Part shown: in pieces, positions 51,044 to 55,023 of the stretch
Numbering within the stretch: the first letter of the stretch is position 1
How the letters are laid out: each line of letters begins with the position of its first letter
Assembly: GCA_036702865.1 (NCBI GenBank)
Contig: DATNQD010000027.1
Span: 62,001 to 126,000 of the forward strand
Length of the DNA: 64,000 bases
Direction: 5' to 3'
Origin: Trichocoleus sp.
GTDB taxonomy: Bacteria; Cyanobacteriota; Cyanobacteriia; Elainellales; Elainellaceae
Position numbers and translations under genes: made by a program
Notes under the pieces: model-generated
Databases searched by the model: none
The model's input: the letters and a program-made list of their open reading frames with translations, nothing else
What the model was told of the DNA's origin: nothing

Positions 51044-51421
51044 ATGAACGATATCACTGGAACCTGGCTTGGAACCTACTGGCAGCAGGGTACACCGACT
51101 CGATTTGAGGTGACTTTTGTTCAGGGAGGTAACTGTCTCAGTGGACAAGTTCTAGACGATGGCGATTTAGGCGAAGCCCAGGTGAATGGAGAAATCATTG
51201 GGCGCAGCATTCAATTTACAAAACAATATCTAACGGGCAACAATCCGCCGATCAACTATACGGGAACGCTCTCTGAGGATGGAAATCTGATGCAGGGGAA
51301 ATGGGCGATCGGCAAACGACATTCAGGTTCCTGGGAAGCGCATCGCAGCAATAATGATTTGATGGCATCGTTAAACAATCGGCTCGCGCAGCAAGTGCCT
51401 GTAGGTATCGGTAAACTTTAG
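51044..51421 (+). CDS. Small beta-rich protein of unknown function
   Basis: From the ATG at 51044 (GAGG six bases upstream) this is a 125-residue protein starting MNDITGTWLGTYWQQGTPTRFEV. Alternating strands follow: NYTGTLSEDGNLMQGKWAIGK and SGSWEAHRS resemble the GxW-GxY-GxWxG pattern of small beta-barrel (avidin- or lipocalin-like) proteins. No signal peptide is seen. It may be translated after the MBL gene, as the gap is 47 bp. The frame is open further upstream, but overlaps the MBL gene. Confidence 0.7.
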   Translation: MNDITGTWLGTYWQQGTPTRFEVTFVQGGNCLSGQVLDDGDLGEAQVNGEIIGRSIQFTKQYLTGNNPPINYTGTLSEDGNLMQGKWAIGKRHSGSWEAHRSNNDLMASLNNRLAQQVPVGIGKL

Positions 51422-51850
51422 ACATTGTAAGCAACAAAATAACGAACTCGATCGCAGTGGTGTTAAATTGCTGCGATTCGTTGTAATTGAATCAGATGTA
51501 AAGCTCCACGTTCTTAATCAAGCGATCGGCTGAACCAAATATGCGTATTCTGTTCAAAAAAGCATAAAAAAAGCTACATTAAGCCTAATTTTTTGTAAAA
51601 AGTAACATTTTTAATCCTTAACCTTGGGTGGACTTCAAGATAGGTAATCTACACCCATTGATAAGTTAGATTCTCCTGAGCAACTGTTAGATTGATCGGT
51701 AAATAAAGCTGCATTTTGGATAGGTTAGATTAGTTTCTCAAAACGAAAAAGCAAAAGCAAAGAAGCAAAAGTTTGAGAACATTTTTTATCCCATTATCCA
51801 GATAGGCTGTACAAATTTACCCATAGTCATTCAATAGGGAGATAAAGAAT
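51422..51850. other. AT-rich upstream region of the three-gene block
   Basis: No ORF is supported. The octamer GTTAGATT occurs three times: 51665-51672, 51686-51693 and 51724-51731, all upstream of the gene at 51851. They might be regulator sites, but the spacing (21 and 38 bp) is irregular. Low GC near 51540-51610 sets this stretch apart from its neighbours. Confidence 0.4.
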
Positions 51851-52603
51851 ATGATGGGCAATCAACAGTCTGAAATTCAGGGTGAGAAAAATTTCCAATC
51901 TACCAGCGCAACTCCGGTCAATGCACCTGTAGAAAGAGAACCGAAGGTTGATGAAATTAGAACTGAATATGTAACCGACACTCAGGCAAAATCAACGAAT
52001 CAATCAATGAACCCGTCTCTAACAAGAGCATTAGTGGGAGGGTTGATTGGTGCAACAGTGGGTAGTCTTGCAGGTGCTTTGGCAAGCCGCAAAACCTCGG
52101 AAGGTTTCAACCATGCCTTCAAAGGAGTTGGTAATGCGTTCAAAACGATCGGCGGTGGTTTAAACCAAGCTGCGAAGGGCGTGGGTGATGCAGCAAAAAG
52201 CGTAGGCGAGGGCGTCAGCTATGCGGTTGTAGGAACGGCTCAAGATACGGCAAAGAGCATTACAGAAGGTGCACAGCAGGTGGGTGTTGCCACCGCAGAA
52301 GCAGTACAGACAACCGCTCAAAATATTAATCAGGTTGTCCATCAAGTATCAAACGCCATAGAAACATCGAGTGATTCTGCTCAGCAATCGATCGATCAGG
52401 CTGCAGACACTGGCAAGCAAATGGCAACCGATACTGAGAGCCTCAGCACTGATCTGATAGAGGCATTGAAAGAGGAATATGCCACTACTGAGGAAGAATA
52501 TTATTCACCAATGGAAGGTGGATTCGTCTATGAAGAAAATCCTGAAATTCGCCTTCAAGAAAACCCTTTTTCAGATGTTGAGATTACCCGTTCGGTTGAA
52601 TAA
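51851..52603 (+). CDS. Glycine-zipper/amphipathic repeat protein, unrecognised
   Basis: In this 250-residue protein, residues 1-55 are polar and disordered. Residues 60-79 are a glycine-zipper-like hydrophobic helix (LVGGLIGATVGSLAGALASR). Residues 85-180 are amphipathic repeats built from GxGDAxKxVGxG-like units, resembling LEA or YtxH-type helices. The C-terminus is acidic (EALKEEYATTEEEYYSPMEGG). GGGAG stands nine bases upstream of the ATG. The next gene starts 12 bp later and encodes a related protein. Membrane association or a structural, stress-linked role is inferred only from composition. Confidence 0.72.
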   Translation: MMGNQQSEIQGEKNFQSTSATPVNAPVEREPKVDEIRTEYVTDTQAKSTNQSMNPSLTRALVGGLIGATVGSLAGALASRKTSEGFNHAFKGVGNAFKTIGGGLNQAAKGVGDAAKSVGEGVSYAVVGTAQDTAKSITEGAQQVGVATAEAVQTTAQNINQVVHQVSNAIETSSDSAQQSIDQAADTGKQMATDTESLSTDLIEALKEEYATTEEEYYSPMEGGFVYEENPEIRLQENPFSDVEITRSVE

Positions 52604-52615
52604 CAGGAGAAACTC

Positions 52616-53161
52616 ATGGTAATGACCGACACAGAGTTGACCGAAGCTGAAAGCAACATTGATGTATCTCCAAACAACACAAGTTCAGATGAAAACATCT
52701 CCGATAACGGATTCAATAAAGTTGCGATCGGTGTCCTGATTGGGGCTACTCTCGGTGGTATTGCTGGGGCTTTGTCTACAAGAGGCGTCGTCGATCGAGT
52801 AAATCGCACAGTTAGAGATGTTGGCAACTCTGTTAAAAAGGCAGCTAGCAGTGTCGATGACACGATAAGACAGGTTGGAGATGCAGTCCATAGCGTTACA
52901 ACCGAAGTCAATAGCACAGTTAAAGACGTTGGAGATGCAGTCAAGGATGCAACTGAAGGTGTCAGCAGTACGGTGCAAAGTACGGTGAATTCTGTGAAGA
53001 GTACAGCTGCAGATGTAAACAGCACTGTGCAGAATACGGTGAATGCGGTTAAAGATACAACTGGAGAGATGATTCCATCTAATGAAAAAGAGCGTAATGT
53101 TACAGAACAAAATACGCTCTACAAGTTAGTTCCTGTCAATTCAAACGAAGCAGGCTCTTAA
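52616..53161 (+). CDS. Paralogous glycine-zipper/LEA-like repeat protein, unrecognised
   Basis: This 181-residue protein is a shorter relative of the preceding product. The zipper helix at 36-53 shares the LIGATxGxxAGALxxR pattern. Residues 65-155 are Val/Ser/Thr/Asp/Lys amphipathic repeats (VKDVGDAVKDATEGVSSTVQ, then STAADVNSTVQNTVNAVKDT). AGGAGA five bases before the ATG is a strong ribosome binding site. The pair is probably a tandem duplication followed by divergence. A second in-frame ATG at 52622 is possible. Confidence 0.72.
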   Translation: MVMTDTELTEAESNIDVSPNNTSSDENISDNGFNKVAIGVLIGATLGGIAGALSTRGVVDRVNRTVRDVGNSVKKAASSVDDTIRQVGDAVHSVTTEVNSTVKDVGDAVKDATEGVSSTVQSTVNSVKSTAADVNSTVQNTVNAVKDTTGEMIPSNEKERNVTEQNTLYKLVPVNSNEAGS

Positions 53162-53194
53162 CTCTTTTTAACAGCACACTTGAATTAAGTAGGG

Positions 53195-53255
53195 GCATTT
53201 GCATCTAAAACTTTAGCCTCAAACGGGCTAGGTGATGCAAATGCTTTGCTTTTCT
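53195..53255 (+). terminator. Intrinsic terminator after the repeat-protein pair
   Basis: GCATTTGCATC (53195-53205) and GATGCAAATGC (53234-53244) form an 11-bp perfect stem. The loop carries a minor AGCC/GGCT stem. A T-rich tail (TTTGCTTTTCTTGT) follows. It lies about 35 bp after the stop at 53161 and separates this pair from the coiled-coil gene. Confidence 0.75.
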
Positions 53256-53405
53256 TGTCTACCTGATTAATCGTTACAACTCATCATTACAAAATTACAT
53301 GACTGCTCTAACATAGCCCCGAATATAAGATATTCAACCTTCAGGTTGATGTAATGATTCTGTTTCCAAATGATAGTGAAAGAGTTAGCGTTGTAAGAAG
53401 TAATT

Positions 53406-54251
53406 ATGGGTTGGCTACCAGGATTCTTTGACAAGAAAAAAACTCAAAATTATCAGCAGCCACCAAATAATTCAACGGCTCAAAATTCGGCTAGTCAGAA
53501 TTCCACCACGATGTTGGAACTTGTGGTAGAAGAAACAATTATGACAGCGGCAAAATGGCTAGTTACTTTTGTAAATCGCAGTTTAGAAACCAAAGCGACT
53601 GCGCCGATCGCTGAGCCAAAACCTGCTGCTGATCATGCAAAGTCTGGTCATGCGGAAACTCAGCACTCAGATACGATCGAAACGCTGTTGTCAAAGTTTG
53701 GTTCTTTAATTGAGCAATCTCACGATCGAACTCAATTAACAATTGCTTTAGAAGATCGCTTAAGTAAGGTCGAAGCATCCTTGAAACAGAGCAATCACCT
53801 GGAGCAGCAGATCCAAGAATTGAACCGATCGTTCGCCCGCCTAGAGAGCCGTCTTACAAACGTTGAAGAGTTAATTCAACCTAACACTAATATCAATCAA
53901 GCACTAACCCAAGTGGGTCAGAATTTAGATCAGTATATTCAAATTTCTAGCCAGTCCATTAATATTTTAGAGAATCGCTTAACGACAGTCGAAGATCTAG
54001 TCGAGCAAGGAGATTCTTCTCTAACAAAGATTACTGAAATAGGTCAAAACTTAGCTATCTTGAAAAATCGCATTGTTCATCTAGAGCAATTACTGGCTCG
54101 ATTTAGTCTCATTCCCAAAATTGTAGAGAGCAACTATCAGGCGATCGCCTCATTACAGCATCATTTGAAAAGCCTCAATGGTTTATCTGACGCTTATGAA
54201 AAGCCCTCGAATGGAAAGCATGCTCATACTGCCATAACTAAAATTGGCTGA
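53406..54251 (+). CDS. Coiled-coil protein of unknown function
   Basis: In this 281-residue protein, an amphipathic N-terminus (MGWLPGFFDKKK) is followed by a Gln/Asn/Ser-rich linker. A helix follows at about 35-62 (TMLELVVEETIMTAAKWLVTFVNRSLE). A long coiled coil (about 90-260) has recurring xxxLExRLxxVExL units, roughly every 30 residues, at about 115, 140, 185 and 220. No family is recognised. It lies in the same orientation as the two zipper proteins but has its own promoter space after a terminator. A link among the three is only contextual. Confidence 0.68.
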   Translation: MGWLPGFFDKKKTQNYQQPPNNSTAQNSASQNSTTMLELVVEETIMTAAKWLVTFVNRSLETKATAPIAEPKPAADHAKSGHAETQHSDTIETLLSKFGSLIEQSHDRTQLTIALEDRLSKVEASLKQSNHLEQQIQELNRSFARLESRLTNVEELIQPNTNINQALTQVGQNLDQYIQISSQSINILENRLTTVEDLVEQGDSSLTKITEIGQNLAILKNRIVHLEQLLARFSLIPKIVESNYQAIASLQHHLKSLNGLSDAYEKPSNGKHAHTAITKIG

Positions 54252-54345: not shown

Positions 54346-55023
54346 GTGTACTTACTCATTCCAGCAGCAGGCTCTGGTCGACGGATGGGCAGCGACCGTA
54401 ATAAGCTACTGCTTCCTTTACTGGGAAAACCTCTACTCACCTGGACGCTTCTCGCTGCCAAAAAATCTCACTCAATTCAATGGATTGGTATTATCAGCCA
54501 ACCTAGCGACTGGCAGGATTTCAAAGCGATCGTGTCAGACTTAGGCTTATCAGAAATGGTGCACTTTATTCAGGGAGGCTTGACCCGCCAAGAGTCTGTT
54601 TATCAAGGACTAAAAGGCTTACCTAGCAGCGCCGATCGCGTTCTAATCCATGATGGGGCACGCTGTTTAGCAACACCAGAATTGTTCGATCGTTGTACAG
54701 AGGCACTCCAAAGCTGCTCTGGTTTAATTGCTGCAATTCCCGTGAAAGACACGATTAAAGTCGTGAATTCAGACTCGGTTGTTGAAAGCACACCCGATCG
54801 CGCTAACCTTTGGGCAGCTCAAACGCCCCAGGGTTTTGTTGTTAAAGATTTAATTCACTGCCATCAAGAAGGCATCCGCCAAGGCTGGGAAGTCACAGAT
54901 GATGCTGCTCTATTCGAGCAATGCGGCTTACCTGTCAAAATTGTGGCAGGTGAGGAAACAAACCTGAAGGTGACAACTCCAGTTGATTTAACTATTGCAG
55001 AGTTTATCCTGCGTCAACGCTAA
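54346..55023 (+). CDS. ispD: 2-C-methyl-D-erythritol 4-phosphate cytidylyltransferase
   Basis: This 225-residue protein has the CTP-binding motif LLIPAAGSGRRMGSDRNKLLLPLLGKPLL near the start and VLIHDGARCLATPELFDRC near 100. PVKDTIKVV, ANLWAAQTPQGF, VTDDAALFEQCGLPVKIVAGEETNLKVTTPVDL complete the family core. It makes CDP-ME in the MEP isoprenoid pathway. The start is GTG at 54346 with poor RBS evidence. No ispF is adjacent. Confidence 0.94.
   Translation: MYLLIPAAGSGRRMGSDRNKLLLPLLGKPLLTWTLLAAKKSHSIQWIGIISQPSDWQDFKAIVSDLGLSEMVHFIQGGLTRQESVYQGLKGLPSSADRVLIHDGARCLATPELFDRCTEALQSCSGLIAAIPVKDTIKVVNSDSVVESTPDRANLWAAQTPQGFVVKDLIHCHQEGIRQGWEVTDDAALFEQCGLPVKIVAGEETNLKVTTPVDLTIAEFILRQR

What the first reader, a model, noticed from the sequence alone, without database searches (positions are those of the whole stretch)
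51422..54251. Three-gene block of unrecognised zipper-repeat and coiled-coil proteins
Two tandem related genes (51851 and 52616) encode a glycine-zipper helix plus long amphipathic repeats. The third (53406) encodes a periodic coiled-coil protein with an amphipathic N-terminus. The first pair is bounded by an AT-rich upstream region with three GTTAGATT repeats and a strong terminator. Nothing in the block matches a family I can name with confidence. It could be an envelope, compartment or stress-protection system, but that is inference.
Basis: partly seen in the sequence, partly recalled or inferred. Interest (0 to 1): 0.55.

Follow-up and report, generated by a model that had tools for sequence, protein, structure and literature searches.

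The report
Co-regulated cyanobacterial membrane-anchored amphipathic-helix proteins
A small, unstudied pair of cyanobacterial genes, kept together across distant species behind their own shared control sequence, appears to make two proteins that plug into a membrane and lay long greasy-sided helices along it, often with a third coiled-coil protein as partner.

Summary
Genes A (51851-52603) and B (52616-53161) are related tandem genes: one glycine-zipper membrane helix each, then a long amphipathic region. C (53406-54251) is a heptad coiled coil. No Pfam or NCBIfam match reaches a curated cut-off.

The block is a real, patchily distributed genetic unit. In 388 cyanobacterial genomes, strong B hits occur in 23, all 23 with A just upstream; strong C hits occur in 13, all 13 just downstream of B. 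Flanking genes differ between clades; the ispD neighbour is not conserved. A-B is the core; C is an accessory of a subset.

Each protein has its own helical period: A 3.67 residues/turn (11-residue type), B 3.60 (18-residue repeat, 5 turns), C about 3.5. B ends in a conserved YxL[V/I]P motif (21 of 24).

Two of the three GTTAGATT repeats belong to a ~55-nt upstream element shared with relatives down to Nostocales; it is the best genome-wide match, upstream of A, in four diverged held-out genomes, and also precedes a divergent third glycine-zipper gene.

Best reading: a conditionally expressed membrane coat or scaffold, in which zippered anchors hold amphipathic helices on the membrane and C bridges. 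Function is inferred, not shown.

The parts
51645..51699 (+). conserved upstream cis-element (box1 ATCTACACCCATTGATAAGTTAGA, then GTTAGATT 21 nt after the first one)
   Evidence: Gibbs motif score 350 vs 226-233 in shuffles; deduplicated 234.7 vs shuffles 165-177 and downstream control 170-202; R1 hit here 25.9 bits
51665..51672 (+). GTTAGATT copy 1, inside the conserved element
51686..51693 (+). GTTAGATT copy 2, second box of the conserved element; possible -10 region (inference)
51724..51731 (+). GTTAGATT copy 3, outside the conserved element
51851..52603 (+). gene A, 250 aa: glycine-zipper membrane helix plus amphipathic region with 11-residue-type periodicity
52028..52084 (+). predicted membrane helix of A (residues 60-78; G63xxxG67xxxG71xxxG75)
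   Evidence: hydropathy peak 1.77; zipper in 23 of 23
52616..53161 (+). gene B, 181 aa: glycine-zipper membrane helix, five 18-residue repeats, C-terminal motif
52721..52777 (+). predicted membrane helix of B (residues 36-54; G39xxxG43xxxG47xxxG51)
   Evidence: hydropathy peak 1.95, flank charge -3 before and +3 after; zipper in 24 of 24
52790..53059 (+). five 18-residue amphipathic repeats of B (residues 59-148)
   Evidence: autocorrelation 0.40 at lag 18 and 0.41 at lag 36, shuffle maximum about 0.29; single helix 59-150 in a low-confidence model
53114..53137 (+). C-terminal motif TLYKLVPV of B
   Evidence: YxL[VI]P[VLI] in 21 of 24 homologues, none in shuffled tails
53195..53258 (+). intrinsic terminator between B and C (11-bp outer stem, inner hairpin, T-rich tail)
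   Evidence: RNA fold -29.7 kcal/mol, z -4.4
53406..54251 (+). gene C, 281 aa: amphipathic N-terminus MGWLPGFF, second amphipathic helix, heptad coiled coil

Best explanation
A and B are a co-transcribed paralogous pair of single-span membrane proteins. A four-step glycine zipper in the membrane helix packs copies side by side. The rest of each protein faces the cytoplasm and forms a long amphipathic helix that lies along the membrane surface: A with 11-residue-type periodicity (3.67 residues per turn), B with 18-residue repeats (3.60, the unstrained alpha-helix). Together they form a coat or scaffold that stabilises, organises or curves a membrane patch. The conserved C-terminal motif of B is a docking site. 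C, where present, sits on the same membrane through its amphipathic N-terminus and bridges units as a coiled coil. A dedicated promoter element shared with further glycine-zipper paralogues switches the set on together. Shown by sequence: anatomy, periodicities, motif, co-inheritance, shared element. Inferred: topology, oligomerisation, membrane coating, the docking and bridging roles, and any stress condition.
For: Adjacency: 23 of 23 genomes with strong B (E<=1e-30) have A upstream on the same strand, 13 of 13 strong C lie just after B (388 genomes); among 36 named loci B follows A in 35, the 36th (L038) ending 299 nt after A (B of L026 found by reading frames). Zipper 23/23 and 24/24. Hydropathy peaks 1.7-2.1 and, for B, net negative or neutral charge before and positive after the helix in all 12 homologues listed. 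Periodicities: A 3.65-3.75, B 3.60-3.62 and C 3.43-3.53 in the homologues listed (12, 12 and 11); best lag 18 in 21 of 24 B. Near-threshold B hit to the lipid-surface protein apolipophorin-III (34.6 vs 36.3 bits). Shared element. C N-terminus MxW[LI]xx[FL][FL] in 11 of 11.
Against: No experiment, localisation or expression data. The AlphaFold model of B is poor (mean pLDDT 47.7), that of C moderate (66.1). Weak hits to helical families may be compositional. Charge bias of A is weak (+1 before, +3 after). Amphipathic repeats fit bundles or coiled coils as well as membrane surfaces. A-B without C is common (10 of 23 genomes), so C is not required.
Confidence: 0.45

Rival explanations
1. LEA-like or hydrophilin-type protectants: disordered in water, helical on drying, protecting membranes in desiccation. 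The membrane helix merely tethers them.
For: Several named carriers are terrestrial or desert genera by recalled knowledge (Nostoc flagelliforme with two copies, Dulcicalothrix desertica, Symplocastrum; names). Low-confidence fold of B fits conditional disorder. 11-residue periodicity of A is LEA-like (recalled).
Against: No LEA family among the Pfam or NCBIfam hits listed. B has an 18-residue, not 11-residue, repeat. A conserved glycine zipper and C-terminal motif are not expected of a generic protectant.
Confidence: 0.2
2. Cytoskeletal or septal scaffold: coiled-coil-rich proteins forming filaments at the membrane, with A-B as anchors.
For: C has heptad periodicity and long predicted helices; known cyanobacterial coiled-coil-rich proteins lie at the cell periphery (PMC7002697, PMC10653889, passages).
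Against: C is missing from 10 of the 23 strong A-B genomes. A and B periods are not 3.5. No match to a named coiled-coil-rich protein above a cut-off.
Confidence: 0.15
3. Coat of an intracellular lipid or polymer body (phasin- or perilipin-like).
For: Sub-threshold hits of B to ApoLp-III, Perilipin, phasin and PhaP families.
Against: A full-length glycine-zipper helix with charge bias suits a bilayer better than a droplet monolayer. All such hits are below cut-offs.
Confidence: 0.1
4. Gas-vesicle accessory proteins (GvpT/GvpP-like).
For: A hits NF041669 at E=0.0052. GvpA-family genes are in 18 of 23 A-B genomes and 12 of 13 with C, against 171 of 388 overall (Fisher p 8e-4 and 3e-4).
Against: 17.3 bits against an 80-bit cut-off. 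Within the window's own family the association vanishes: 5 of 6 A-B genomes against 18 of 21 others, p=1. G015 carries A-B-C without any GvpA-family match. In G000 the GvpA-family genes lie on other contigs.
Confidence: 0.04

Closest known systems
YtxH-like proteins (PF12732)
   Same: single glycine-rich N-terminal membrane helix followed by an amphipathic helix; B aligns to the whole model
   Different: 21.4 bits against 37.5 for B; longer repeat region, C-terminal motif, paired operon; the genome has a separate true YtxH gene (60 bits)
Apolipophorin-III / apolipoprotein / perilipin type lipid-surface helices
   Same: long amphipathic helix built from short repeats (B 34.6 bits vs 36.3 for ApoLp-III)
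   Different: those lack a membrane-spanning anchor (recalled); 18-residue period in B
CURT1/CurT thylakoid-curvature proteins
   Same: membrane anchor plus amphipathic helix in cyanobacteria, proposed curvature role (PMC9950537, passages)
   Different: CURT1 has two membrane helices and two cytoplasmic helices; A and B have one anchor and a repeat region about 90 residues long
SepT (All2460) and other cyanobacterial coiled-coil-rich proteins
   Same: coiled coil at a membrane, three-gene synteny block (PMC10653889, passages)
   Different: SepT has two N-terminal membrane spans, SMC and TerB-C domain predictions and P-loop NTPase neighbours; C shows none of these or its sequence

Membership tests
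YtxH (PF12732) | score above the curated cut-off 37.5 bits | tested here: not met
   B 21.4 bits; A not among the listed families
YtxH (PF12732) | N-terminal glycine-rich membrane helix then amphipathic helix | tested here: met
Apolipophorin-III (PF07464) | score above the curated cut-off 36.3 bits | tested here: not met
   B 34.6 bits; likely driven by repeat composition
LEA proteins | match to a LEA family | tested here: inconclusive
   none among hits listed; only the best 25 of 37 (B) and 25 of 43 (C) Pfam hits were shown
GvpT/GvpP (NF041669) | score above 80 bits | tested here: not met
   A 17.3 bits
GvpT/GvpP (NF041669) | occurs with gas-vesicle genes | tested here: not met
   no association within the family (5/6 vs 18/21); G015 lacks a GvpA-family match. 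Across the class an association exists (18/23 vs 153/365)
CURT1/CurT | two membrane helices | tested here: not met
   one glycine-zipper segment per protein, followed by an amphipathic repeat region
Coiled-coil-rich filament proteins (C only) | long heptad coiled coil | tested here: met
   period 3.43-3.53 in 11 of 11, z 1.7-12.9; helices 86-157, 161-233
Coiled-coil-rich filament proteins (C only) | filament formation | not testable with these tools
   needs expression and microscopy
SigJ regulon (J-Box) | GGGaAtacT upstream | tested here: not met
   no such sequence in 51645-51699 or in the element consensus, by reading (J-Box from PMC6495340, passages)

The most novel reading that the evidence does not exclude
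A previously undescribed bacterial membrane-coat system: a regulon of glycine-zipper-anchored amphipathic-repeat proteins, including a new class with exact 18-residue, five-turn repeats, driven by its own conserved promoter element and bridged in some lineages by a membrane-attached coiled coil. It would be an anchored bacterial counterpart of synuclein- or perilipin-like membrane surface proteins.
Probability: 0.3. Interest if true: 0.65.

Novelty: new variant of a known kind. Interest (0 to 1): 0.48.

Why it matters
Cyanobacteria run two membrane systems and many survive drying, but few proteins that stabilise or shape those membranes are known. A paired, co-regulated set of anchored amphipathic-helix proteins with a clear switch element gives a compact target: two genes, one promoter, clear predictions. 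The exact 18-residue period also offers a natural test of how repeat length tunes a helix for lying flat on a membrane.

Tried and rejected
Phage origin: PHROG hits are to tail tape-measure and other long helical proteins and look compositional; a scan of viral contigs with the B alignment found no relative. Gas vesicles: see rival. Regulon by strict pattern: GTTARN{15,17}GTTARATT gives no excess over the reversed-pattern control in 13 genomes, so the strict pattern is useless; the profile R1 works better but found no convincing other regulon members beyond the divergent glycine-zipper genes. C-terminal motif of B elsewhere in five genomes: counts at control level, so it marks no wider protein set. 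A C-terminal motif for A: ENPF-like in only 4 of 23 by regular expression, so not claimed. Known response-regulator or sigma sites: J-Box does not match; Rre1 papers were seen only as a search listing. Single-protein scan of genome contigs with A found none; the alignment scan found 36. Fold searches were not run because the B model is too poor and the C model is a generic coiled coil.

Rows dropped: the element alignment A9 used 22 of the 26 regions given to the motif finder; L029, L044, L057 and L058 were left out because their matches looked poor, which favours the model. In one search the element was found upstream of A in 32 of 37 sources (22 of them training rows); it was missed in L029, L044, L057, L058 and L059. 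In one search, G026, G028 and G134 gave no element upstream of A. Only 150 candidates per genome were scored there. The alignments A4, A5 and A6 hold 24, 11 and 23 chosen sequences, not all available ones.

Full report
What is there. The window is G000:C27:62001-126000, a 5.9-Mb genome, cyanobacterial by its named relatives. Gene A (51851-52603, 250 aa) and gene B (52616-53161, 181 aa) are 12 nt apart on the plus strand; gene C (53406-54251, 281 aa) follows after a strong terminator. A second hairpin (51450-51478) closes the gene upstream of A. The next gene downstream, an ORF at 54346 that reads like ispD (recalled resemblance), is not part of the unit: in the five relatives with fetched A-B flanks no window protein other than A, B and C recurs beside the block, apart from one weak 34% partial match.

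Family searches. No protein reaches a curated cut-off in Pfam or NCBIfam. The best are B to apolipophorin-III (34.6 bits, cut-off 36.3), B to YtxH (21.4, cut-off 37.5) and A to GvpT (17.3, cut-off 80). PHROG hits are to long helical tail proteins. The closest solved chains to A are designed helical repeats at E=0.02; B and C were not compared with the PDB. The genome's one YtxH match over the cut-off lies elsewhere.

Distribution. In 36 genomes of the order, A occurs in 6, each with B behind it; C in 6, of which 5 directly after B and one weak stand-alone relative (G027). In 388 genomes of the class at E<=1e-30: A in 24, B in 23, C in 13. All 23 B genes have A next to them upstream; the 24th A (G144) ends 984 nt from a contig end and no strong B was found. 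All 13 C genes directly follow B. Weaker hits raise the totals to 29 (A), 34 (B) and 15 (C) at E<=1e-6 and include glycine-zipper paralogues or other helical proteins. C within A-B genomes has Fisher p=2e-18, which ignores shared ancestry. Among 36 named loci B follows A in 35 (34 by automatic ORF calling, L026 by reading its frames; L038 ends too early), and C follows in 10. Carriers include Leptolyngbya, Nodosilinea, Nostoc, Calothrix, Scytonema, Microseira and others; the Nostoc and Calothrix loci listed have no C. Flanks differ between clades.

Protein anatomy. Every A (23 of 23) and B (24 of 24) aligned has GxxxGxxxG in the protein, in the hydrophobic segment in those printed; hydropathy peaks are 1.7-2.1. 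In B the net charge changes from negative or neutral before to positive after the segment in the 12 rows listed, which by the positive-inside rule puts the long C-terminal part in the cytoplasm; A is less clear. After the segment, hydrophobicity is periodic: A 3.65-3.75 residues per turn, mostly 3.67 (the 11-residue class), B 3.60-3.62, C 3.43-3.53 (12, 12 and 11 rows listed). B is built of 18-residue repeats (lag 18 is best in 21 of 24; L043, L044 and L055 differ). B ends in YxL[VI]P[VLI] in 21 of 24; the three exceptions (L050, L051, L055) are Calothrix or Dulcicalothrix. C starts MxW[LI]xx[FL][FL] in 11 of 11 and has a second amphipathic helix (residues 35-64) before the coiled coil. The AlphaFold models give one helix 59-150 for B (pLDDT 47.7, not reliable) and long helices for C (66.1).

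The upstream element. A motif search over 26 A-upstream regions (up to 320 nt) gave one 24-nt motif at 350 against 226-233 in four shuffled sets. With 17 lineages only, it scored 234.7 against 165-177 in ten shuffled sets and 170-202 in eight runs downstream of B. A second box, GTTARATT-like, follows at 20-22 nt in most of them. In the window these are copies 1 and 2; copy 3 is outside. A sequence-only profile (R1, 22 rows) was searched in 15 genomes: in 12 the best genome-wide match is upstream of A. Five of these 12 are training loci and three are close to training loci; four (G357, G379, G084, G139) are diverged (mostly 64-75% DNA identity in alignable coding parts, up to 86% in a flank of G139 and 80% in an 82-nt piece of G379), at E=5e-6 to 6e-4. 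Three genomes (G026, G028, G134) gave none at A. Over the window and 36 named loci, 32 of 37 have the element upstream of A, ten of them not in training though several are close relatives of training rows. Unexpectedly, L041, L047 and L049 carry a second copy on the other strand (E=4e-4 to 5e-3), upstream of a divergent gene with its own glycine zipper that weakly matches the B profile. These three loci are close relatives, so this counts as one or two observations. The element is not the SigJ J-Box (PMC6495340, passages). The spacing of about 17 nt between the TTAAG part and TARATT suggests a promoter core with unusual -35 and -10 boxes; that is inference.

Interpretation. The established part is a conserved pair of paralogous, zipper-bearing, amphipathic-repeat proteins with a dedicated shared control element, plus a linked coiled-coil gene in a subset. 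That A and B form one operon is inferred from the 12-nt gap, the shared upstream element and the terminator after B; in some relatives the gap is several hundred nt (up to 730), so co-transcription may not hold everywhere. The most likely mechanism is a membrane coat or scaffold. Rivals are LEA-like protection, a coiled-coil scaffold, a droplet coat and gas-vesicle help. The last was tested: an overall association with GvpA-family genes (18 of 23 against 171 of 388) disappears within the window's own family, and one full A-B-C genome has no such match.

Literature. Full-text searches for YtxH with cyanobacteria, glycine zipper with cyanobacteria and thylakoid, YtxH domain-containing protein, coiled-coil-rich proteins, apolipoprotein A1 with cyanobacteria, hypothetical protein and desiccation, CURT1 and lipid droplets with Nostoc listed no paper that, from its title or abstract start, describes these genes; only passages of four papers were read. 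Most subscription papers are outside that library, so this is not proof of absence.

Noticed in passing
L041:3773-4519, L047:3525-4355, L049:3540-4253 (minus strand): A third, divergently transcribed glycine-zipper gene sits beside A and carries its own copy of the upstream element, suggesting a small regulon. L042 and L046 have similar neighbours; L046 with only a weak element (E=0.066).
   Followed up: partly
L167 (G026:C5, element at locus 1501-1553): A weak element match (E=0.017) lies upstream of a gene that reads like a manganese catalase (recalled resemblance, not searched). If real, it would tie the element to oxidative or drying stress.
   Followed up: no
L024:9048-9581: A stand-alone relative of the C-terminal half of C, without A or B and without the amphipathic N-terminus.
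   Followed up: no
L038 and L039: Nostoc flagelliforme FACHB-838 carries two A loci on separate contigs.
   Followed up: no
window 51050-51421: The small gene just upstream of the block has no Pfam hit above a cut-off and no NCBIfam hit.
   Followed up: no
L169 (G304:C1, near 2604594): A good element match (E=0.0015) with no ORF of 80 aa or more on its strand within the 1.5 kb held downstream; perhaps a relic of a lost copy.
   Followed up: no
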